The notes under the pieces: generated by a model
What the model saw: the letters and a program-made list of their open reading frames with translations, nothing else
The model's database searches: none
Told to the model about the DNA's origin: nothing
NCBI GenBank assembly: GCA_015066935.1
Contig: SVNK01000003.1
Coordinates: 186,001-250,000 of the forward strand
DNA from: Ruminococcus sp.
GTDB lineage: Bacteria; Bacillota; Clostridia; Oscillospirales; Ruminococcaceae
Length of the DNA: 64,000 nucleotides
Direction: 5' to 3'
Shown here: positions 2,840 to 63,814 of the stretch, in pieces
Position numbering within the stretch: position 1 is the first letter of the stretch
Layout: every line of letters begins with the position of its first letter
Position numbers and translations under genes: made by a program

Positions 2840-3817
2840 ATGGATTTTGGTTCTTTATTTATTGGTGCAGCGGTACTTATATTTATACTCGCATTTATCA
2901 TCAGATGCTTCAGAATTGTACCACAGGCACATATTTTCGTAGTAGAGCGTCTCGGTTCATTCCACGCTGAGTGGGAGACCGGTATGCATATTCTTGTACC
3001 TTTCATCGACAGAATTGCCGGTAAGGTTTCACTCAAGGAAAAGGTTGTTGACTTCAAGCCGCAGCCTGTTATCACAAAGGATAACGTAACAATGCAGATC
3101 GATACTGTCGTGTTCTATCAGGTTACTGACGCAAAGCAGTACATCTACGGTGTTGAAAGACCTCTCGCAGCTATCGAGAATCTTTCCGCAACAACTCTCC
3201 GTAACATTATCGGTGAAATGGAACTCGACTCAACACTTACATCAAGAGATGTAATCAATACAAAAATCACAGCTATCCTTGACCAGGCTACAGACCGCTG
3301 GGGTATCAAGGTAAACCGTGTAGAGCTTAAGAATATCCTTCCTCCCCGTGAGATTCAGGATGCCATGGAAAAGCAGATGAAGGCTGAGCGTGAGCGTCGT
3401 GAGAAGATCCTTCAGGCAGAGGGTGACAAGAAGTCACAGATCCTCGTTGCAGAAGGTGAGAAGGAATCACAGATTCTCCGTGCACAGGCTAAGAAGGAAT
3501 CACAGATTCTTGAGGCTGAAGCTCAGAAGCAGGCAATGGTTCTCCGTGCTGACGCCGTAAGAGAGCAGAAAATCCTTGAGGCTACCGGTGAAGCTAAGGC
3601 TATCGAAATGGTTCAGCAGGCACTTGCAGACAGTTTGGTAAAGCTCAATCTTGCAAATCCCAACGAGAGAGTTCTCCAGCTCAAATCGCTTGAAGCATTT
3701 GCAAAGGCTGCTGACGGTAAGGCTACAAAGATCATCATTCCCAGCGAGATTCAGGGAATGGCAGGTCTTGCAGCAGGCTTAAAGGGAATCATCGAGAACG
3801 ATGCTCCCAAGCAGTAA
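2840..3817 (+). CDS. SPFH/band 7 membrane protein (stomatin/QmcA type)
   Basis: A 325-residue protein with one N-terminal membrane anchor (~5-25), a band 7/SPFH domain (~27-190, with VPQAHIFVVERLGSF and VKVNRVELKNILPP-like segments), and a long charged Ala/Glu/Lys/Gln coiled coil (~180-265) containing three closely similar 11-residue units around KESQILRAQAK. A Gly/Ala-rich oligomerisation tail follows. SPFH proteins form ring-like membrane scaffolds, and pairing with NfeD is the usual arrangement. Codon use is strongly biased, suggesting high expression. The ribosome binding site is CGGAGG before the ATG. The exact physiological role is not known. Confidence 0.93.
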   Translation: MDFGSLFIGAAVLIFILAFIIRCFRIVPQAHIFVVERLGSFHAEWETGMHILVPFIDRIAGKVSLKEKVVDFKPQPVITKDNVTMQIDTVVFYQVTDAKQYIYGVERPLAAIENLSATTLRNIIGEMELDSTLTSRDVINTKITAILDQATDRWGIKVNRVELKNILPPREIQDAMEKQMKAERERREKILQAEGDKKSQILVAEGEKESQILRAQAKKESQILEAEAQKQAMVLRADAVREQKILEATGEAKAIEMVQQALADSLVKLNLANPNERVLQLKSLEAFAKAADGKATKIIIPSEIQGMAGLAAGLKGIIENDAPKQ

Positions 3818-18571: not shown

Positions 18572-21500
18572 ATGCACAAGAAATTTTCAAGAGCGATTGC
18601 TGCAAGCCTTATGGCCGCTACAATGATCGCACCAACTGTTGCTAACGTTGCGCCCATGAGTGTTTCTGCTGGTCAGGTACTTGGTGAGTCAACATTCGAT
18701 TTCAAGGCGCTTCCTTGGCACACATGTGAAACAAGCCCTGCTAAGCAGGACTTCGCTATTGAGGACGGAGCTTTCCACGTAAAGGTTGAAGTTGCTGAAG
18801 GTGGCGACGGCGAGAAGTGGGATCTTCAGTTCAGACACAGAAACCTTAACTTCAAGTCCGGTCATACTTATAAGGTAAGCTTCAAGGCTAAGGCTAAGAG
18901 AGCAGGCATGGAGCTTTGCTCAAAGATCGGTAACATCAAGGGTGATGAAGAGTACTTTGTTCTTGCTGGTACAGAAATGAAGGCTGGTCCTAATATGGGC
19001 GGTACATGGGGTAAGGCAGCATCTCTGTCTACTTCATACCAGACTTTTGAGGGTACATTTACACCTACCAAGGATCTCGAAGGTGTTGAGTGGTGCTTCC
19101 ACTACGCTAAGGGTACAGAGTGGGAAGGTAATGGTCAGGCTGGTGACGAACTCTGGTTTGACGATATGTCAATCATCTGTACAACATGTCCTGATGAGTA
19201 TGCACCTGATACATGTAACTCAGATCCTTCAAACTCCTACGGTGCTGTAAACCGTGACTACGGTGCTAAGAAGAACCCCGATATCCTTATGGATGGCGAC
19301 GAGATAATCAACTTCATTTCAGTTAACCAGGTAGGTTACTATCCTAAGCTTGCAAAGACAGCTACACTCGGTGATAACTCAGGTGATATCCTTCACGGTG
19401 CTTCTACTATTACACTGAGCAAGGATTCATACACATTCGAGCTTGTTGATGCTCAGTCTGATAAGGTTGTATATACAGGCACAACAGGAAAGAAGTTCCA
19501 CGATGCTGACTCTGATGATAACGTATGTAAGATCGATTTCTCAGAGTATCAGACTCCCGGTAGATACTATCTCCGTATCGAGGGTGAGAAGTGGAGATCA
19601 TTCGAATTCAATATCGGTGACAACATTTACGAAGATACATCACATAACATGCTTACAAATGCTCTGAACTACTTCTATCAGAACCGTTCAGGTATTGACA
19701 TTAAGGAAGCATACATCACATCCGGTGACAAGTCTACACTTGCTCACGAGGGTGGTCATAAGACAGATACAGCTTCTATCCAGAAGATCTGGAAGAACGA
19801 GTATGCAAGCGAGACAGAAGCTACTTCAACATACAAGTCAGGTACACTTACTGCAAACGGCGGTTGGTACGACGCAGGTGACCACGGTAAGTACGTTGTT
19901 AACGGCGGTATCTCTGTTTGGACTCTCCAGAATATGTACGAGAGATCAATTCTTATCGGTAAGGACAAGGAAAAGTTTGCTGATAATTCAGGCGTTTGCG
20001 TAGTTCCTGAGGCAGGCAACGATATTCCTGATATCCTTGATGAGGCTGCTGTAGAGCTTGACTTCATCGCTCAGATGAAGGTTGTTTCCAGCGATTCCGC
20101 ATGGGGCAAGTATGATGGTCTTTACTACCACAAGCTCCACGACCATAAGTGGACAGGACTTGCTACAAGACCTTACGACTATGAGGAGGAATGGAAGACT
20201 GTTCGTATCGTTAAGCCTCCGACGCTTGCTGCTACACTGAACTATGCTGCTTGTGCTGCTCAGGCTGCAAGACTTTGGGAGCCATATGACTCAGCAAAGG
20301 CTAAGACATACCTTGAGACTGCTAAGGAAGCATTTGCTGCATACGAGAAGCACTGGTATGAATATGATTCCTCCACGACAACTCATCCTACACTTAAGTG
20401 TGAGTGTCCTGCTGAGGAAATCAACGAGAATTCACTCTATGCTCCTATGTGGCAGGCAAAGGGCGGCGGACCTTACGGTGATAACAACGTTCTTGACGAT
20501 GCTTACTGGGCTGCATGTGAAATCTTCATTTCAGCTTCTGAAATGGGCGATTCCGACGCTGCAGAATTCAAGAAGGTAATTGATGCTTCTAAATACGCTT
20601 ACTCATGTGAAACAAGAATGGTCGGCGGTGAGAATAAGGACGGTTCATTCACATCCTTTAACTGGGGTAATACTGCATCATGCGGTACACTTGCACTCTC
20701 ACTCCATCAGGATCTCCTTTCTGATTCAGAAAACCAGAAGGTAGAAGCTGCTATTACAGAGGCTGCTGATGCGTACGTAGATATGGAAGAGCAGCAGGGT
20801 TATGGTATTCCTTACACCTATGATGGTCCCGGATACAATGATCCTAACAACCTCAAGCCCTCTATTGTTATCAAGGGTTATGAGTGGGGTTCAAACTCAA
20901 TGGTAATCAATAACGCTATCGTTATGGCTTACGCTTACGACCTTACAAAGGATATTGATTACATGAACGGTGTTACAACTGCTATGGACTACCTCTTCGG
21001 TGTTAACCCGCTTTCATTCTCCTTCGTAACAGGTTACGGTACATATAAGGAGCAGAATCCTCACCACAGATACTGGTCATATGAGCTTGATAAGACTCTG
21101 CCTATGGCTCCCGACGGAGTTCTCTCCGGTGGTCCTAACGCAGGTCTCCAGGATCCTTATGTTCGTGCACTTGGATTCGTTCCCGGTAAGGATGGCAACC
21201 CCTCACAGAGATGTTATGTTGACTCAATTGAAGCTTGGTCTACAAACGAGGTAACAATCAACTGGAACTCACCTTTCGCTTGGATCGTTTCATTCCTTCA
21301 GGATGAAGCTCCTAATCCTATTCCTGATCCTACTACCGGTTCTTCAGAGGGTACAACAGGTGGTGGCACAGCTACTCTCTGGGGTGACGCTAACTGTGAC
21401 GATAAGGTAAACCTTGCAGACGCAGTTCTTATCATGCAGAACAAGGCTAATCCTTCTAAGTACTCCATCACAGCTCAGGGCGAGCTCAACGGTGACGTTG

Positions 21501-21705: not shown

Positions 21706-21956
21706 ATTAATGTCAGCTCATCAACTTAAAATTGGCTTAATATAGCTTTATAAAGCCAATTTTAAGTTTACAAAGTGCAAGAAAAAATAAAGGAATTGAT
21801 AATTTTTCTTGCACTTTGTTTTGCCCTATAGGGCAAAATGAGCATGACATCAATGAATGTGATGCGCAAATTTCTCATATTATAAAGAATTTGCGCTACC
21901 CGAACGAAGTTCGGGGCAATAACCGCCTGACGGCGGTTATTGAGGACACATGAATT
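21706..21956 (-). repeat. Dispersed structured repeat, full copy 1 (modules A and B)
   Basis: A 251-bp element nearly identical to the copy at 63477-63726, with only a handful of substitutions. It runs from ATTAATGTC (module A end) to GAGGACACATGAAT (module B end). All stems of the family are present: AACTTAAAATTGGCTT with its complement, CAAAGTGCAAGAAAAA with its complement, TTTTGCCCTATAGGGCAAAA, GCGCAAATT with AATTTGCGC, CCGAA with TTCGG, and AATAACCGCC with GGCGGTTATT. The B end touches the stop codon of the dockerin gene, which is read B to A. Unlike the other B-containing copies, no -35 box is found at this end. It lies between convergent genes. Confidence 0.9.
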
Positions 21957-23310
21957 ATAACTCGGTCAATCCAAGGAGGAACTGCTGAATCAGAAGTGCA
22001 TCCTTGTTTGTGATTCCGTCGCCTGTATCAGCAACGTCGCCGTTCTTTGCGCCCTGTTCAGAAAGTTCATACTTAGAGGGGTTAGCCTTGTACTGCATGA
22101 TAAGAACTGCGTCTGCGAGGTTAACCTTATCGTCACAATTAGCATCGCCCTTTGCTGATTCCTCAGAGCCGGATGTATCAGGAGGCGTTGTTGAAGTTGA
22201 AGATGTTACAGTAGTAGAAGTTGTTGTTACGGTGGTTGTAGTAGTGGTTGTAGTTGAACCGCTGTTCCATATTGCCTTGAGCTGAATTCCGATACCTGGT
22301 TCAGCACCTCTTACAAGGAATTCGTCGCCGGGCTGATAAATCTCATCACCGAACTGCCAGCCGCCGAAAGTGCTGCCCTCGACGGTGATTGTAGGCTCCG
22401 GAACAGTGATTGTTGTACCGGTATCACCCTTTACAATGATGTTGTCTTTACCGGATTTGCCTTGCGAGAAAACTACAGCATAATTTATCGGCTTCCAAAC
22501 CGCATACATAACAACGTCTTCTTCAGGCATTATGTAGCCGCTGAGAGGCGAATATGTTTTGCCATCGTTTTCGCAGTACCAACCTGTAAGCTTGTAGCCG
22601 ATTCTTGAGAAGCGGTTAGAAGCCTGAAGGTCTGTTGAGAATGTTTCGACATATTCGTACTGCATCATAGTAGCACCGAGTAGTCCGTCAACGTCTCCCG
22701 GGAGATATGTCATTTTGCGGAAGTTGTACCATTTTGCGGTAAGAGTAATGTCGTGATCGGGCATTACAATTCTGCTTTCACCACGGTAGATTTCGTCGTT
22801 ATAAATCCAGCCGACGTGCTTTTTGCCTTCGACACCTGTAATGCCATAAAGCGAAACGGTGTGGAAAGAGCCTGGGAGACACGCCTGAGGCGGCATATCT
22901 TCACTGATATCAATAGTCTGACCATCGACTTCGCAGACGTAATTTACGTGGAAAATGTCACCTTCTTCTTCATTCAGCCATACGGGCCTGAAGGTGAGGT
23001 CCTTTGTATCGAGGCGGAGTGCGTCTCCGGGAGCATAACCACGGAAACCGTCGGCAGTCCAGCCGCTGAAAGAGTAACCTTCCTTTTCGAGAATAGCCTT
23101 GGGCATATAAACGGAAGAATTGGGCTTGCTGGTGATTGTTTCGATAACCGCATCATCCTCGATAGTGATACCATCGCCTTCATACTCAAATGAAACAGTA
23201 ACCACGTCGTCAGTTGAGTCATCAGCAGAAGCGCTGACAGCAGCTGTAGATGTAATTCCTACCGCTGATGCAAGAATTAAAGAAACTATGCGATTGTGAA
23301 TGTGTTTCAT
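21955..23310 (-). CDS. Secreted B-repeat (InlB/Listeria-Bacteroides type) protein with dockerin
   Basis: A 451-residue secreted protein with no recognisable catalytic domain. The signal peptide (~1-28) starts MKHIHNRIVSLILASAVG. Four repeats of ~70 residues follow (~35-110, 113-190, 192-270, 272-345). Each has a GYxxxGW-like core and ends with an AxW motif (FRPVWLN, LTAKWYN, MYAVWKP, LKAIWN), the pattern of the Listeria-Bacteroides B-repeat (Flg_new). A Thr/Ser linker (~348-385) leads to a dockerin (388-451) starting GDANCDDKVNLADAV. The dockerin should attach it to the cellulosome as a non-catalytic component, possibly for adhesion. The ATG at 23310 is chosen for GGGAGGG directly upstream. 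The upstream neighbour is the DUF4250 gene in the same operon. Confidence 0.88.
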   Translation of the reverse strand: MKHIHNRIVSLILASAVGITSTAAVSASADDSTDDVVTVSFEYEGDGITIEDDAVIETITSKPNSSVYMPKAILEKEGYSFSGWTADGFRGYAPGDALRLDTKDLTFRPVWLNEEEGDIFHVNYVCEVDGQTIDISEDMPPQACLPGSFHTVSLYGITGVEGKKHVGWIYNDEIYRGESRIVMPDHDITLTAKWYNFRKMTYLPGDVDGLLGATMMQYEYVETFSTDLQASNRFSRIGYKLTGWYCENDGKTYSPLSGYIMPEEDVVMYAVWKPINYAVVFSQGKSGKDNIIVKGDTGTTITVPEPTITVEGSTFGGWQFGDEIYQPGDEFLVRGAEPGIGIQLKAIWNSGSTTTTTTTTVTTTSTTVTSSTSTTPPDTSGSEESAKGDANCDDKVNLADAVLIMQYKANPSKYELSEQGAKNGDVADTGDGITNKDALLIQQFLLGLTEL

Positions 23311-41953: not shown

Positions 41954-42100
41954 ATTAATGTCTGCTCATCAACTTAAAATTGGCTTAGTATAGCTTTATA
42001 AAGCCAATTTTAAGTTGACAAAGTGCAAGAAAAAATAATGGAATTGATAATTTTTCTTGCACTTTGTTTTGCCCTATAGGGCAAAATGAGCAAGACATCA
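41954..42100 (-). repeat. Dispersed structured repeat, module A only
   Basis: ATTAATGTC to GACATCA (~147 bp), nearly identical to module A of the 63477 copy, including the 18-bp stem TCAACTTAAAATTGGCTT with its complement, the CAAAGTGCAAGAAAAA stem and TTTTGCCCTATAGGGCAAAA. Module B is absent: after GACATCA the sequence departs into unrelated DNA. The ends of module A are themselves inverted repeats (TTAATGTCTGCTCAT against the complement of ATGAGCAAGACATCA), so A can be a unit of its own. It lies between the convergent htrA and thioesterase genes. Confidence 0.85.
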
Positions 42101-45794: not shown

Positions 45795-45823
45795 TTGAAT
45801 TTTTTGTGAAGTCGTGTTATAAT
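45795..45823 (+). promoter_or_regulatory. Promoter abutting the module B repeat, upstream of the DUF896 gene
   Basis: TTGAAT (45795-45800), a 17-bp spacer and TATAAT (45818-45823). The -10 box overlaps the first two bases of the repeat (ATTAATG from 45822), so the mRNA starts within the repeat and the repeat is part of the 5' leader. Confidence 0.7.
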
Positions 45824-45942
45824 TAATGTGTCCTCAATAACCGCCGTCAGGCGGTTATTGCCCCGAACTTCGTTCGGGGAGCGCAAATTCTTCATAATAT
45901 GAGGAAATAATATGAGGAATTTGTGCATCGCATTCATTGATT
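45822..45942 (+). repeat. Dispersed structured repeat, module B only (inverted orientation)
   Basis: The reverse complement of module B: ATTAATGTGTCCTC, AATAACCGCC/GGCGGTTATT, CCCCGAA/TTCGGGG and GCGCAAATTC/GAATTTGTGC (one G-U pair), ending at CATTCATTGAT, the same point at which module A breaks off elsewhere. The loop of the third hairpin carries a 13-bp tandem duplication (ATAATATGAGGAA at 45894-45906 and 45907-45919). The gene's ribosome binding site starts about 18 bp after the repeat ends. Confidence 0.85.
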
Positions 45943-45972: not shown

Positions 45973-46176
45973 TTGACACAGGAAAAAATAGACAGAATCA
46001 ATGAGCTTGCCAGAAAATCGAAGAGCGAGGGACTTACTGATGCTGAAAAAGCTGAGCAGACCGAGCTTCGGAACGAGTACAGACGCTCTGTGACGGGGAA
46101 TCTTGCGGGACAGCTCAGCAACACATATATAATGACTCCCGACGGAAAAAAGCGCAAAGTCGGAAAGAACGGGTGA
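45973..46176 (+). CDS. DUF896/YnzC-family small protein
   Basis: A 67-residue protein starting MTQEKIDRINELARKSKSEG, with the DUF896 (UPF0291) pattern: two amphipathic helices (ARKSKSEGLTDAEKAEQ, then LRNEYRRSV) and a C-terminal TPDGKKRKVGKNG tail. The structure of this family is a helical hairpin and its function is poorly known. The start is TTG 45973 with GAGGTG seven bases upstream; no ATG fits. It is followed by cdd after 4 bp. Its promoter and leader contain module B of the repeat. Confidence 0.82.
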   Translation: MTQEKIDRINELARKSKSEGLTDAEKAEQTELRNEYRRSVTGNLAGQLSNTYIMTPDGKKRKVGKNG

Positions 46177-58090: not shown

Positions 58091-58939
58091 TTACGTAGAC
58101 AGAAACATTTTGAGTTTCTCAATATTAGCCATAGCAGTTTTCCGTCCGATGCGGCAAACCTCACGGAGTACATCGGGATCATGCTCTATATGTCCGACAG
58201 GCAGCTTTTCGTCGGGTGCGATTACAAATGCACGCCCATCATCTTCGGCATTTTTTACATAATCGAGCTGTTTGTTGTACATTTTGCTTCTTCTCGCCGA
58301 AGCCTTAACAAATTCGGGATATTTTCTCATTGCAGCTTTAATTAGCGGAAGGCTGCGACTTTTTCCCTTACGATAACTTCTCGGCTGAGTAAGAATCACA
58401 ACATTTCGCTCATACCCCATTTTTTCGATGAATCTAAGTGGGATAGAGTCTGAAATTCCGCCGTCGAGGAGCTTATATCCATCGACCTCCACTATATGTG
58501 ATGCCAGAGGCATTGAAGCGGAGGCTCTCATCCATGTCAATTCTCTGTCGTCGGCAGTAAGACATTTATGATAAACAGCCTTACCTGTTTCTACGTTTGT
58601 GCAGACAACGTAAAATTCCATTTCCGATTCTGCAAAAGTTTTTGTATCAAAAATGTCGAGTTTTTTTGGAACTATATTATAACAGAAATCGGCTCCGAAC
58701 ATATCTCCTGTTTTTAAGAGACTGCGGAAGCTGCAAAATCTTTTATCTTTGCAGAAGCGGGTATTATATCTGATAACACGTCCGGGCTGTCCGGATTTAT
58801 AATTGCAGCCGAAAACAGCTCCGGCGGAAACTCCTGCCGCCCCATCGAATTCGACGCCGTTCTCCATAAGAACGTCTATGACACCGGCGGTAAACATTCC
58901 ACGCATTGCTCCGCCTTCCATTACAAGACCTTTTTTCAT
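58091..58939 (-). CDS. Patatin-like phospholipase
   Basis: A 282-residue protein of the patatin family. The oxyanion loop is GGAMRGM (~9-15), the nucleophile elbow is GVSAGAVFG (~36-44), and the catalytic Asp is in LLDGGISDSIPL (~168-179). No signal peptide is visible, so it is presumably cytoplasmic or membrane-associated, hydrolysing lipids. The ATG at 58939 has GGAGCGA upstream. The repeat at 58966-59214 lies in its 5' leader, 26 bp upstream of the start. Confidence 0.9.
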   Translation of the reverse strand: MKKGLVMEGGAMRGMFTAGVIDVLMENGVEFDGAAGVSAGAVFGCNYKSGQPGRVIRYNTRFCKDKRFCSFRSLLKTGDMFGADFCYNIVPKKLDIFDTKTFAESEMEFYVVCTNVETGKAVYHKCLTADDRELTWMRASASMPLASHIVEVDGYKLLDGGISDSIPLRFIEKMGYERNVVILTQPRSYRKGKSRSLPLIKAAMRKYPEFVKASARRSKMYNKQLDYVKNAEDDGRAFVIAPDEKLPVGHIEHDPDVLREVCRIGRKTAMANIEKLKMFLST

Positions 58940-58965
58940 CTATATCGCTCCGTTTTTCAATATTA

Positions 58966-59214
58966 ATTAATGTCTGCTCAACAATTAAAAATTGGCTTAA
59001 TACAGGTTTTAAAAGCCAATTTTTAGTTGTCAAAGTGCAAGGAAAAACAGAATATTGAAAAATATTCCTGCACTTTGTTTTGCTCTTTCGGACAAAACGA
59101 GCTTGACATCAAGAAAAGTGACGCACAAATTCCCCATATTATAAAGAATTTGCGCTCCCCGAACGAAGTTCGGGGCAATAACCGCCTGACGGCGGTTATT
59201 GAGGACACATTAAT
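58966..59214 (-). repeat. Dispersed structured repeat, full copy 2 (diverged)
   Basis: A 249-bp copy, more diverged than the others in module A. Its stems remain: AATTAAAAATTGGCTT with AAGCCAATTTTTAGTT (a T-A to A-T pair swap and one G-U wobble compared with copy 63477), CAAAGTGCA with TGCACTTTG, TTTTG with CAAAA around a CCGAAAG-type loop (read on the minus strand), GCGCAAATT-like, CCCCGAA/TTCGGGG and AATAACCGCC/GGCGGTTATT. Read on the minus strand it follows a TATAAT box and leads to the patatin gene. Confidence 0.85.
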
Positions 59215-59241
59215 TATATAACCTTCTGGAGGATTTGTCAA
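59213..59241 (-). promoter_or_regulatory. Promoter abutting the repeat, upstream of the patatin gene
   Basis: On the minus strand: TTGACA (complement of 59236-59241), a 17-bp spacer and TATAAT (complement of 59213-59218), overlapping the outer end of the repeat. Confidence 0.75.
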
Positions 59242-60488: not shown

Positions 60489-60563
60489 CAAGAATTTTGT
60501 CATTTATAACACTTTGTTATCATAAGTTGTGATTTGTTGGATTACTTGTCCCGATACAATGAA

Positions 60564-60599
60564 AAAAGACTGCACAGATATTCTCCGTGCAGTCTTTTG
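60564..60599. terminator. Terminator (first copy of a repeated hairpin)
   Basis: AAGACTGCAC, loop AGATATTCTCC, GTGCAGTCTT with A-run and T-run flanks. An identical hairpin lies at 61239-61275. It terminates the small Cys-rich gene on the minus strand and can work in both directions. Confidence 0.8.
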
Positions 60600-61238: not shown

Positions 61239-61275
61239 TAAAAAGACTGCACAGATATTCTCCGTGCAGTCTTTC
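61239..61275. terminator. Terminator (second copy of a repeated hairpin)
   Basis: AAGACTGCAC, AGATATTCTCC, GTGCAGTCTT, identical in stem and loop to 60564-60599. It terminates the HTH gene and, on the minus strand, the GH26 gene. Confidence 0.85.
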
Positions 61276-61288
61276 TGATTATTATCCT

Positions 61289-63442
61289 TTATATTTCAGG
61301 AACCACATCTTTACCATAAACAGGAAGCTTCTCGGTAAGTCCGAGGAGATAACCCTGAATTGCAAGAGCGTCTCTGTTAGTGATGCCGTCGCCGGGATCG
61401 AATACATCCGCATTGAGTGCACCCTGCTCAGAAATCTCATACTTGGCAGGATTTGCCTTATGCTGCATAATGAGAATTGCGTCTGCAAGATTAACTGTAC
61501 CGTCCTCATTAGCATCGCCGTAGTCAACATCAGCGGGAGCACTGCCGCCAAAGGTATAGTCTACCATATCGCAGTCCTTATCTGTAGCTGACTCTGTAGC
61601 AGCGTTCCATACGTTAGACCACCAGATCTGGAACTCTGCTGTCTTGATGGAAGCAGGAATATCGGAAATATCAAGCTCAACAACAAGCTTACCTGTAGAA
61701 TCGGCATTGCCGCTCCAATCAATGTTTACCCAGTCATCAGCACTTGTACCGTAACCGAGTCCGCCGCCGATTGAAGCAGTTGCAGCACCGTCGATTTCGA
61801 CAGTCATAGTAGTTCTGTCATCGGGGAGTTCGATTTTGTATGATTTCTGTGCAAAAACAAACTGTGAGGGATCTGTAGTAGTTGTTGTCATTGTAGTAGT
61901 TGTTCTTGATGTGGTAGTAGTGCTGGGATCGATAACGATATTGCGTGTATAGAGGTCCTTGGGAAGTTCATCAAGAGTTACACAATATTCACTCTGATAC
62001 ATAGCGATAGTGTTTTCCTTTGTATTGAACTTAGGGTCTGAAAGGAAGTTGATATCAGAGCTTCCGCCGTCATACCAAGTACAGAAATAGAGCCAGCCAG
62101 CCTTATCATTTGTGAGGTTCTCGACAGTTGAGAAGCTGTCGTTCTCAGCCATTGCTACCATTTTTGAACTGTCATATTTCTCCATGATTCCGTAGAATAT
62201 TGATGATGCGGAACCTGTGTTGCCGGAATACTTATCGTAACCGATAATATCAACATAATTGTCGCCGGGATACCAGTTTACGGATGTATCAAAGTTGTAG
62301 CTGTTCCACTCCCAGATGAGGTTGTGGCAGCCGTATTCGTTTGTAAGAATGTCATATGTATAGATCCAGAGCTTCTTGTAAGCCTCGGAACCTTCTCTGC
62401 CCCACCAGAACCATGAGCCTGTTTCTCCGCCTGCACCTTCGGCTTCGTGGAGAGGTCTCCAGAGTACGGGAATACCCTGTTCCTGAAGCTCAAGGAATTC
62501 CTTGGCAAGGATGTCGAGAGACTGAAGATAGTACTCGTTGTCCTTTGTGCCGGGAGTAGCTGCCTTTGAAGGCGAGAAATCGGTCTTTGTACCGTAAGTT
62601 GTAGCACTCCAGTCGATTCTGCTTCCGATTGTGTAGCTTTCGAAATCGTTGGGGACATTAAGGTGGAACGACGCTGTTGCGATACCGTTCTTATCCTTTA
62701 CCCAGTTGATAATACGGTCAGTTGAGCCGTCGTCGCTGCCGTATGCCGGACAGCAGAAGTTACCGTAGTCAAAGCCTCTGATTGCGGGATAATGACCTGT
62801 AAGGTCGTTGAGGTATTCAAACTCGTACTCAAGATTGTGAGGTCCGCCTGAGTAGATTTCCTGCTGACCTGAGATGATTCCGTTACCGTAAACTTCTGAG
62901 AGATAGTCCATGAGACTTCTTACCTCAGGGATTGCCTTTGTGTCGCAGGGGGAAGTCTGGGACGCCTTTATTTCAGGCAGCTGAACGGATTCTACTGTGA
63001 AATAATCGAAGTTGGACCAGCCCCAGCTCTTGCTGATGAGCATAGTGTTTGTGCCCTTCTTGAGCGGAACAGCCTGTACTTTTACTGCTTCAAATCCTGC
63101 ACTTGAGGGAATTGCCAGTGCACCCTGACCGTTCCCGTTGATTGAAAGATCCTGCTGTTTGCTTCCGCCGATACCGCCTGCATAAACAGTAATGTCGTAA
63201 GCACCGGCTTCCTCTACCTCAAAGTCGATAGAGATTGTTCCGCTGTCAGTCATTTTAAGACATTTTCCGCCGCTTGCGCCTGAACTGTTCTCGACGGTAA
63301 CGTCACCTGTAATGACAGCGTCCTCAAACTCGTACTTTGCACCTTCTGCTGATGTTGCGATTCCGCCTATTGCGAGACCGTTCACAGCCAGAGCAGCCGA
63401 CATAACGACAGCTCCTGTCTTCTTCAAAAATTTTGAATGCAT
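61289..63442 (-). CDS. Cellulosomal GH26 mannanase with CBM35-like module, extra module and dockerin
   Basis: A 717-residue secreted enzyme. The signal peptide (~1-32) starts MHSKFLKKTGAVVMSAALAV. A CBM35-like module (~34-155; YEFEDAVITG and YFTVESV) precedes the GH26 domain (~165-505), with the acid/base Glu in WRPLHEAEG (~325) and the presumed nucleophile in VAMAENDSFS (~433). A Thr-rich linker leads to an unassigned beta-rich module (~540-635; EFQIWWSNVWNA) and a dockerin (~642-717) starting YGDANEDGTVNLADAILI. It should hydrolyse beta-1,4-mannans. The ribosome binding site is GGGAGGA. Its mRNA leader includes the repeat at 63477-63726. Confidence 0.92.
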   Translation of the reverse strand: MHSKFLKKTGAVVMSAALAVNGLAIGGIATSAEGAKYEFEDAVITGDVTVENSSGASGGKCLKMTDSGTISIDFEVEEAGAYDITVYAGGIGGSKQQDLSINGNGQGALAIPSSAGFEAVKVQAVPLKKGTNTMLISKSWGWSNFDYFTVESVQLPEIKASQTSPCDTKAIPEVRSLMDYLSEVYGNGIISGQQEIYSGGPHNLEYEFEYLNDLTGHYPAIRGFDYGNFCCPAYGSDDGSTDRIINWVKDKNGIATASFHLNVPNDFESYTIGSRIDWSATTYGTKTDFSPSKAATPGTKDNEYYLQSLDILAKEFLELQEQGIPVLWRPLHEAEGAGGETGSWFWWGREGSEAYKKLWIYTYDILTNEYGCHNLIWEWNSYNFDTSVNWYPGDNYVDIIGYDKYSGNTGSASSIFYGIMEKYDSSKMVAMAENDSFSTVENLTNDKAGWLYFCTWYDGGSSDINFLSDPKFNTKENTIAMYQSEYCVTLDELPKDLYTRNIVIDPSTTTTSRTTTTMTTTTTDPSQFVFAQKSYKIELPDDRTTMTVEIDGAATASIGGGLGYGTSADDWVNIDWSGNADSTGKLVVELDISDIPASIKTAEFQIWWSNVWNAATESATDKDCDMVDYTFGGSAPADVDYGDANEDGTVNLADAILIMQHKANPAKYEISEQGALNADVFDPGDGITNRDALAIQGYLLGLTEKLPVYGKDVVPEI

Positions 63443-63476
63443 TTTAATATCCTCCCAAAAATATATTTGTCCTTTT

Positions 63477-63726
63477 ATTAATGTCAGCTCATCAACTTAA
63501 AATTGGCTTAATATAGCTTTATAAAGCCAATTTTAAGTTGACAAAGTGCAAGAAAAAATAAAGGAATTGATAATTTTTCTTGCACTTTGTTTTGCCCTAT
63601 AGGGCAAAATGAGCAAGACATCAATGAATGTGATGCGCAAATTCCTCATATTATAAAGAATTTGCGCTCCCCGAACGAAGTTCGGGGCAATAACCGCCTG
63701 ACGGCGGTTATTGAGGACACATTAAT
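63477..63726 (-). repeat. Dispersed structured repeat, full copy 3 (best preserved)
   Basis: A 250-bp element in the GH26 leader. Perfect stems: TCAACTTAAAATTGGCTT (63492-63509) with its complement (63524-63541); CAAAGTGCAAGAAAAA (63542-63557) with its complement (63574-63589); TTTTGCCCTATAGGGCAAAA (63590-63609); GCGCAAATTC (63635-63644) with GAATTTGCGC (63658-63667); CCCCGAA (63669-63675) with TTCGGGG (63681-63687), loop CGAAG; AATAACCGCC (63689-63698) with GGCGGTTATT (63703-63712). The A end, ATTAATGTC-A-GCTCAT (63477-63491), can pair with ATGAGC-AA-GACATCAAT (63609-63625). The outer ends ATTAATGT and ACATTAAT are also inverted repeats. Confidence 0.9.
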
Positions 63727-63753
63727 TATAACGCATATTTTTTGGTAAATCAA
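63725..63753 (-). promoter_or_regulatory. Promoter abutting the repeat, upstream of the GH26 gene
   Basis: On the minus strand: TTGATT (complement of 63748-63753), a 17-bp spacer and TATAAT (complement of 63725-63730), whose last bases coincide with the outer end of the repeat. The start codon is 282 bp downstream, so the repeat makes up most of the leader. Confidence 0.7.
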
Positions 63754-63814
63754 GTGTTTCTAATTTATTTTACATTTTTATAATAATTTTGGAGAATATG
63801 CCGTCTCACAGCGA

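What the first reader, a model, noticed from the sequence alone, without database searches (positions are those of the whole stretch)
63477..63753. Structured repeat sits between promoter and start codon in three unrelated genes
In three copies the outer end of module B overlaps the -10 box TATAAT of a different promoter: GH26 (TTGATT-17-TATAAT, 63725-63753), patatin (TTGACA-17-TATAAT, 59213-59241) and DUF896 (TTGAAT-17-TATAAT, 45795-45823). The -35 boxes and spacers lie outside the repeat and differ. The other end of each copy is 26-34 nt before a start codon. Each copy is therefore positioned as a transcribed leader and is read in the same direction (B to A). The genes have no shared function. 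This could be a leader RNA that has spread, or a transposable palindrome with a preference for TATA-like targets, including -10 boxes.
Basis: partly seen in the sequence, partly recalled or inferred. Interest (0 to 1): 0.88.

Follow-up and report, generated by a model that had tools for sequence, protein, structure and literature searches.

The report
Tiny transposon inside bacterial promoter boxes
Rumen Ruminococcus bacteria carry many copies of a small protein-less jumping DNA that often lands in the -10 box of gene promoters, facing one way, leaves that box in place and so probably becomes the first part of the gene's message.

Summary
The repeat is a 242-bp non-autonomous mobile element (MITE-like), at 40 separate places in this 2.1-Mb genome and matched in 40 of 100 sampled genus genomes. 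It starts ATGTGTCCTCAATAAC, ends GAGCWGACAT, and is flanked by a 6-bp target duplication, most often TAATTA (66 of 90 full copies exact; shuffles mean 34, maximum 41). Of 155 left ends, 105 read TATAAT and 62 have TTG exactly 17 nt upstream of it (0-8 at other spacers); right ends 0 of 103. At lepA, relatives without the element carry the same promoter; aroC and DUF896 agree less completely. Most of the bias follows from the TATAATTA target plus intergenic retention: 43 of 73 element sites versus 18 of 47 empty intergenic TATAATTA sites (p=0.04; stricter tests not significant). Two of five window copies are not at promoters. Hairpins are kept by compensatory changes without G-U preference, against a sense-RNA regulator. 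No mobilising enzyme and no Rfam family were found. Known promoter-targeting transposons insert upstream of the -35 box, so this looks like a new variant.

The parts
63481..63722 (-). Full 242-bp element upstream of the GH26 gene (B end at 63722, A end at 63481)
   Evidence: ends ATGTGTCC / GAGCTGACAT
63723..63728 (-). Left target duplication TAATTA, overlapping the -10 box (TATAAT, 63725-63730); -35 TTGATT 17 nt upstream
63475..63480 (-). Right target duplication, TAATAA (one mismatch to the left copy)
61289..63442 (-). Downstream gene: glycosyl hydrolase family 26 with carbohydrate-binding modules
   Evidence: PF02156 E 2.8e-50
58970..59210 (-). Full 241-bp element upstream of the patatin-like gene
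59211..59216 (-). Left target duplication TAATTA inside TATAATTA; -10 at 59213-59218, TTGACA 17 nt upstream
58964..58969 (-). Right target duplication TAATTA (exact)
58091..58939 (-). Downstream gene: patatin-like phospholipase
   Evidence: PF01734 E 2.7e-21
45826..45937 (+). Short (module-B) copy upstream of DUF896; right end uncertain (45933, or 45937 followed by TGATTA)
   Evidence: module-B forms of 94-95 bp elsewhere
45820..45825 (+). Left target duplication TAATTA inside TATAATTA; -10 at 45818-45823, TTGAAT 17 nt upstream
   Evidence: element-free L121 and L135 read TTGAAA-17-TACAATTA there
45973..46152 (+). Downstream gene: DUF896 (TTG start inferred from the reading frame)
   Evidence: PF05979 E 1.2e-20 for 45976-46152
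21710..21951 (-). Full element not at a promoter: TAATTC at both ends, in the stop codon of the 21955-23337 gene (Listeria-Bacteroides repeat domain)
41958..42098 (-). Module-A-only remnant: right end and TAATTA present, B module missing
   Evidence: (query 113-259)

Best explanation
It is a family of small non-autonomous transposable elements (MITE-like; 242 bp, with short forms down to 51 bp) of Ruminococcus. Recognition ends ATGTNNNCTCANNAAC are joined into the sequence TA-TAATTA or close variants, with duplication of 6 bp (7 in a few copies). Because TATAATTA is the sigma-A -10 box plus TA, and only the 5' side of the target is asymmetric, the element enters promoters in one orientation, rebuilds the -10 box at its B end and is then transcribed from about its first base as an untranslated leader. 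Shown by sequence: mobility, duplications, target sequence, orientation, a pre-existing promoter at lepA (and, less completely, at DUF896 and aroC), and that the promoter-side copy is the one kept. Inferred: that transcription starts at the B end, that an unidentified enzyme supplied in trans moves it, and that the hairpins act mainly at the DNA level (transposition or palindrome repair) and are at most mildly regulatory in RNA.
For: Dispersed copies: 40 separate places plus a tandem fragment in the own genome, 40 of 100 genus genomes. Left and right 6-mers agree exactly in 66 of 90 full copies, shuffles mean 34.0, maximum 41; 19 of the 66 are not TAATTA (TAATAA 9, TAAATA 4, TAAGTA 3, TAATTC 2, TATATA 1). 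13 distinct short forms of 51-137 bp with exact duplications (15 rows, two loci listed on both strands; the scan required matching duplications). TTG at spacer 17 in 62 of 155 left ends, in 0 of 103 right ends; 5-of-6 matches to TTGACA 41 of 155 versus 1 of 103. Element-free relatives: a promoter in the 130 nt before the gene in 27 of 29 lepA, 24 of 28 aroC and 20 of 28 DUF896 loci, shuffle expectation 1.0, 0.7, 0.9. In the TAAT part of the duplication the far copy is the changed one in 9 of 10 discordant copies.
Against: No mobilising enzyme: no PF06782, PF01609, PF00665 or PF00872 match in the own genome; 0 of 29 transposase loci have paired ends with equal flanks, and no 300-6000 bp element with both ends was seen in held loci, most of which are only about 3 kb. 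About half of own-genome left ends have no recognisable -35 at 17 nt. The excess at promoters beyond the motif in non-coding DNA is borderline (p=0.04; stricter -35 p=0.24, TG p=0.13, 4-of-6 p=0.14). Element-free relatives mostly lack full TATAATTA at aroC (6 of 28) and DUF896 (4 of 28), against 21 of 29 at lepA. 24 of 90 copies do not have an exact 6-bp repeat (the GH26 copy among them). The repeat could also be the overlap of a site-specific recombinase.
Confidence: 0.82

Rival explanations
1. A spreading structured leader RNA: the element is kept because its RNA regulates or stabilises the downstream mRNA, like a portable riboregulator.
For: Very stable fold (-119.5 kcal/mol, z -17.2; coordinates shifted by 1 nt, 63482-63723); more than one Watson-Crick pair type in 16 of 60 pairs; oriented position downstream of -10 boxes; sense consensus fold lower than antisense (-66.8 versus -51.8); before clustering G-U exceeded A-C, 81 versus 51 cells.
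Against: After clustering (44 representatives) G-U cells are 43 and A-C cells 34 (p=0.36), at 22 versus 26 pair positions. Both strands fold strongly (z -14.0). About half of own-genome copies are not at recognisable promoters. The genes share no function (nine proteins). No Rfam match at gathering score.
Confidence: 0.12
2. The enzyme does not read a DNA motif but the melted -10 region of RNA polymerase open complexes, so the element is truly promoter-targeted.
For: Excess of TTG at 17 nt over intergenic TATAATTA sites, 43 of 73 versus 18 of 47 (p=0.04); extended -10 TG enriched against all TATAATTA sites, 45 of 79 versus 29 of 94; one orientation only.
Against: Other tests against intergenic sites are not significant (p 0.13-0.24); insertions in a stop codon and tandem insertions into another copy's duplication need no promoter.
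Confidence: 0.22
3. Site-specific integration by a tyrosine-type recombinase: inverted arms GAGNNNACAT / ATGTNNNCTC around a 6-bp overlap TAATTA, with a circular intermediate.
For: Arm-overlap-arm layout; tandem copies share one 6- or 7-mer (L003, L092, L094); four DDE families absent from the own genome.
Against: 7-bp TAATATA versions exist, and several different 6-mers occur as matching pairs, which fits staggered cutting better. Tyrosine recombinases were not searched for.
Confidence: 0.2

Closest known systems
[quoted passage not shown]
   Same: Insert at sigma-A promoters, most p-MULT 3 elements in one orientation set by unequal end repeats (PMC3942029, passages including the abstract).
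   Different: They insert 15-17 bp upstream of the -35 box and encode their transposase; here the insertion is inside/after the -10 box, the element encodes nothing, and PF06782 (ISLre2, linked by recall) was found in 4 of 125 genus genomes and not in this one.
BOX elements of Streptococcus pneumoniae
   Same: Modular, strongly structured, intergenic non-autonomous repeats that can be part of 5' or 3' untranslated regions (PMC3049150, passages).
   Different: BOX elements are over-represented between convergent genes; this element often sits just downstream of -10 boxes, with a 6-bp AT-rich duplication. BOX sequences were not compared directly.
RUP, Correia/NEMIS, ERIC and other bacterial MITEs
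   Same: Short, non-coding, terminal inverted repeats, target duplications, hairpin RNA (PMC2229807 and PMC10969869, passages).
   Different: Most carry a TA motif at their ends and several bring promoters of their own; here the host's -10 box is the target and is preserved.

Membership tests
MITE (miniature inverted-repeat transposable element) | Short, non-coding, many dispersed copies | tested here: met
   242 bp in 37 of 94 distinct full copies, range 210-246; 40 places in the own genome
MITE (miniature inverted-repeat transposable element) | Terminal inverted repeats | tested here: met
   ATGTNNNCTCANNAAC at both ends
MITE (miniature inverted-repeat transposable element) | Target-site duplication | tested here: met
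   66 of 90 exact 6-mers, shuffles maximum 41
MITE (miniature inverted-repeat transposable element) | Cognate autonomous element with the same ends | tested here: inconclusive
   none seen: end pattern in the own genome (list cut short) and 8 relatives, four transposase families in 125 or 10 genomes, end check on held loci; other recombinase families not searched
Promoter-targeting p-MULT elements (ISLre2/TnGBS) | Insertion 15-17 bp upstream of the -35 box | tested here: not met
   insertion at the -10 box, 17 nt downstream of the -35 box
Promoter-targeting p-MULT elements (ISLre2/TnGBS) | Mutator-type transposase present | tested here: not met
   no PF06782 or PF00872 match in the own genome; ISKra4-type not searched
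Known structured RNA family (Rfam 15) | Covariance-model match at gathering score | tested here: not met
   0 matches in the window; 18 matches up to E=1 on 63440-63780, all below gathering score
Pneumococcal BOX element | Sequence match to boxA/B/C | not tested
   layout compared only

The most novel reading that the evidence does not exclude
A parasitic DNA whose integration machinery reads the sigma-A -10 element itself, possibly in the melted open complex, and thereby makes its own sequence the 5' end of host mRNAs while leaving the promoter working: a harmless 'safe harbour' for a mobile element.
Probability: 0.25. Interest if true: 0.85.

Novelty: new variant of a known kind. Interest (0 to 1): 0.62.

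Why it matters
Elements that survive by landing where they do little harm are known from terminators, tRNA genes and sites upstream of promoters (partly recalled). Here the landing site overlaps the -10 box, a core part of the promoter, and the duplication rebuilds it. It gives a natural series of oriented leader insertions at unrelated genes (lepA-like, chorismate synthase, a PLP-dependent enzyme, GH26), some with element-free counterparts in relatives, and a genome in which the mobilising enzyme must lie outside the four transposase families tested. The promoter copies would also add about 240 nt of very stable structure to housekeeping and fibre-degradation mRNAs (inference).

Tried and rejected
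Rfam at gathering score and permissive: nothing credible; 18 sub-threshold hits, mostly microRNA or snoRNA models plus three bacterial sRNAs, as any long hairpin would give. Search for an autonomous partner: end pattern in the own genome with one mismatch (the list was cut off, so one-mismatch places late in the list were not seen) and exact in 8 relatives. The one pair about 3.5 kb apart (G077 C55, L190) proved to be two separate small copies. Of 20 stretches taken at or after such ends in G031 and G077, 18 showed small, mostly truncated copies, three of them cut by contig ends; in two (L194, L205) the script found no end. Four Pfam transposase families gave no partner. Plasmid and phage records: no match. 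Viral contigs: 15 match the 16-base right-end pattern, one of them (L220) also the left end with a whole copy; its flanks equal those of the G077 copy L190, so it may be prophage or bacterial DNA; the other 14 were not examined. The Methylobacter hit L187 was taken as a likely chance match to an 18-mer, not tested, and left out of the counts. IS200/IS605-type (HUH) insertion was considered and rejected because the flanking 6-mers vary together. The first promoter control (all TATAATTA sites, p=2e-6) was too generous because it included sites inside genes; the intergenic control gives p=0.04. The sense-strand G-U excess before clustering (81 versus 51) vanished after clustering. In the decay test, copies whose left 7-mer is TAATATA were left out. 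Papers: full-text searches for promoter- or TATAAT-targeting insertions, MITEs and Ruminococcus repeats and three wider ones; no listed title or abstract described this element or -10-box insertion; only four papers were opened, as passages. None of the 12 rows contained the words Ruminococcus flavefaciens.

Full report
The observation. The three sites are present as described. Each has a -35-like box, a 17-nt spacer, TATAAT, then TA and the repeat's B end ATGTGTCCTCAATA. Pfam confirms GH26, patatin and DUF896 downstream. One is a full copy at 21710-21951 with TAATTC on both sides, lying in the stop codon of a gene with a Listeria-Bacteroides repeat domain. The other is a module-A remnant at 41958-42098. 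Two of five window copies are therefore not at promoters.

Extent. The window is part of contig C17 of a 2.1-Mb genome. The own-genome search gave 96 matches; leaving out hits of the palindromes on themselves they fall at 40 separate places plus a 41-nt tandem fragment, the closest 99% identical to the GH26 copy. In the genus sample 40 of 100 genomes match; in the family sample 5 of 297, among them G347, of another genus, with full-length copies, and two weak short matches. An 18-base pattern in named genomes returned 48 stretches: 45 titled Ruminococcus (R. flavefaciens, other isolates and rumen MAGs), two Ruminiclostridium MAGs and one Methylobacter. Contig lengths agree between the two sources (G012:C27 and CACWHY010000027.1, both 27290), so the genus is Ruminococcus by inference. 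No plasmid or phage record matches. One viral contig carries a full copy, with the same flanks as the copy L190 of genome G077.

Element anatomy. Full copies are mostly about 242 bp (94 distinct sequences, 37 of exactly 242). The ends are ATGTGTCCTCAATAAC and, read inward from the other side, typically ATGTCWGCTCAWCAAC. Between them the GH26 copy folds into six hairpins in two domains: module B closed by AATGTG/CACATT and module A closed near TGAGC..GACA (folded with coordinates shifted by 1 nt, 63482-63723). The minimum free energy is -119.5 kcal/mol, z -17.2; the antisense strand also folds strongly, -111.7, z -14.0.

It is mobile. In 90 full copies the six bases before the left end equal the six after the right end in 66; dealing the right ends out at random gives 34.0 on average and 41 at most. 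Nineteen of the 66 are not TAATTA: TAATAA 9, TAAATA 4, TAAGTA 3, TAATTC 2, TATATA 1. A few copies have a 7-bp TAATATA. In 24 of 90 the 6-mers differ, the GH26 copy among them (TAATTA/TAATAA). Thirteen distinct loci hold short forms of 51 to 137 bp with both ends and exact duplications; five are module B alone, ending at its own CATCACAT or CGTCACAT (the scan required exact duplications, so this set is selected). Tandem copies share a single 6- or 7-mer between them.

It often lands in -10 boxes. Of 155 distinct left ends with at least 45 nt of flank (38 from the own genome, 48 from the pattern search, 17, the rest from other relatives), 105 read TATAAT and 79 TATAATTA. TTG lies exactly 17 nt upstream of the box in 62 and a 5-of-6 match to TTGACA in 41; at every other spacer from 8 to 30 the counts are 0-8 and 0-3. 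In the own genome the figures are 18 and 13 of 38. On the right side, read in mirror image, TTG at 17 nt occurs in 0 of 103 and a 5-of-6 match in 1. The two bases before the left duplication are T in 121 and A in 131 of 155; the mirror positions on the right are T in 23 and A in 35 of 103 (A, not T, is common at the first, 60 of 103). So the target is asymmetric and fixes the orientation.

How much is promoter and how much is motif. TATAATTA sites without an element were the control. Inside long reading frames 1 of 36 has TTG at 17 nt; outside them 18 of 47. Non-redundant element sites with TATAATTA have 43 of 73 (p=0.04 against the intergenic control; 5-of-6 criterion 29 of 73 versus 13 of 47, p=0.24; extended -10 TG 39 versus 18, p=0.13; 4-of-6 42 versus 20, p=0.14). 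Over all non-redundant left ends 58 of 147 have TTG at 17 nt. The control sites come largely from DNA near element copies. So the sequence preference plus loss of insertions in genes explains most of the bias; active recognition of promoters is possible but not shown.

The promoters came first. Three loci were tested in the best-scoring relatives (29 fetched loci each, of 118, 107 and 106 matching genomes). At lepA (named by eye; Pfam shows the GTPase and EF-G domains) 27 of 29 element-free loci have a promoter in the 130 nt before the gene (shuffle expectation 1.0) and 21 have TATAATTA; the relatives typically read TTTACA-17-TATAATTA where this genome reads the same followed by the element. 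At aroC it is 24 of 28 (expectation 0.7; L309 carries the element), but only 6 have TATAATTA. At DUF896 it is 20 of 28 (expectation 0.9; L130 is an element match without the gene), only 4 with TATAATTA; L121 and L135, which keep the divergent dehydrogenase gene, read TTGAAA-17-TACAATTA at the insertion point. For aroC and DUF896 the promoters lie at varying distances, so not each is shown to be the same promoter. The 30-40 nt between element and start codon is then simply the original leader: in lepA relatives the -10 box mostly lies 33-45 nt before the gene (24 of 27).

Does it matter to the cell? Within the four duplicated bases that belong to the -10 box, ten copies differ between sides (TAATATA copies left out), and in nine the far copy is the changed one (two-sided p=0.02). 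The promoter-side copy is thus being kept, so these promoters are probably still used and the element transcribed. The hairpins are kept by compensatory changes (16 of 60 pairs show more than one Watson-Crick type among 44 clusters). G-U cells (43) are not clearly more common than A-C cells (34; p=0.36), at 22 versus 26 pair positions. Selection on sense RNA should favour G-U; DNA hairpins or palindrome repair would not. I therefore do not read the element as a regulator selected in RNA, though a stable 5' structure may protect the mRNA (inference).

What moves it is unknown. The own genome, estimated 98.7% complete, has no match to PF06782, PF01609, PF00665 or PF00872, and none of the 29 transposase loci fetched from relatives has these ends with equal flanks. 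Either another recombinase type supplies the activity or the source element has been lost.

Compared with what is known. The nearest precedent in action is TnGBS and the ISLre2/ISKra4 groups, which insert 15-17 bp upstream of the -35 box (PMC3942029, passages including the abstract). This element works in a similar spirit but at a different point of the promoter, and fails the membership tests for those families. As a MITE it meets size, copy number, end repeats and duplication; a partner element was not found. BOX elements are near in build, but they favour the space between convergent genes (PMC3049150, passages). My paper searches listed no description of this family or of -10-box insertion; the library lacks most subscription journals.

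Noticed in passing
L191-L206 (G031, G077 stretches): Many truncated copies keep the -10 box and the first one to three hairpins but have lost the rest, directly before genes (L206: a dnaA-like protein by eye). In the own genome 14 copies have a left end but lack module A (at least seven of them are complete short forms) against 5 with a right end and no left end, by my count; the promoter-side part may be retained selectively.
   Followed up: partly
L015 right flank; L200, L201: A second dispersed sequence (CTTCAAGAGTNAATTGGCGGAGCAAT or close to it) lies near element copies in two genomes; perhaps another repeat or a decayed gene family.
   Followed up: no
window 21382-21462 and 22070-22150: 81-nt inverted repeat, 90% complementary, 607 nt apart, around the 21710-21951 element copy.
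   Followed up: no
window 60563-60597 and 61240-61274: Identical 35-nt terminator-like hairpin at two places 677 nt apart.
   Followed up: no
right target copies, for example L010, L017, L079: The second base of the right duplication is G instead of A in 10 of 103 right ends, while the left one is A in 154 of 155; L078/L079, an orthologous pair by their flanks, differ at this base, so it changed after insertion.
   Followed up: partly
G054:C8:3707-4166 and L309 (G023): Element sequence also lies upstream of the lepA gene of G054 (query 5-491 matched) and of the aroC gene of G023; whether these are shared old insertions or independent ones was not settled.
   Followed up: no
window 3405-3536: Four tandem 33-nt units in a coding region (AGATCCT...), probably an 11-residue protein repeat.
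   Followed up: no
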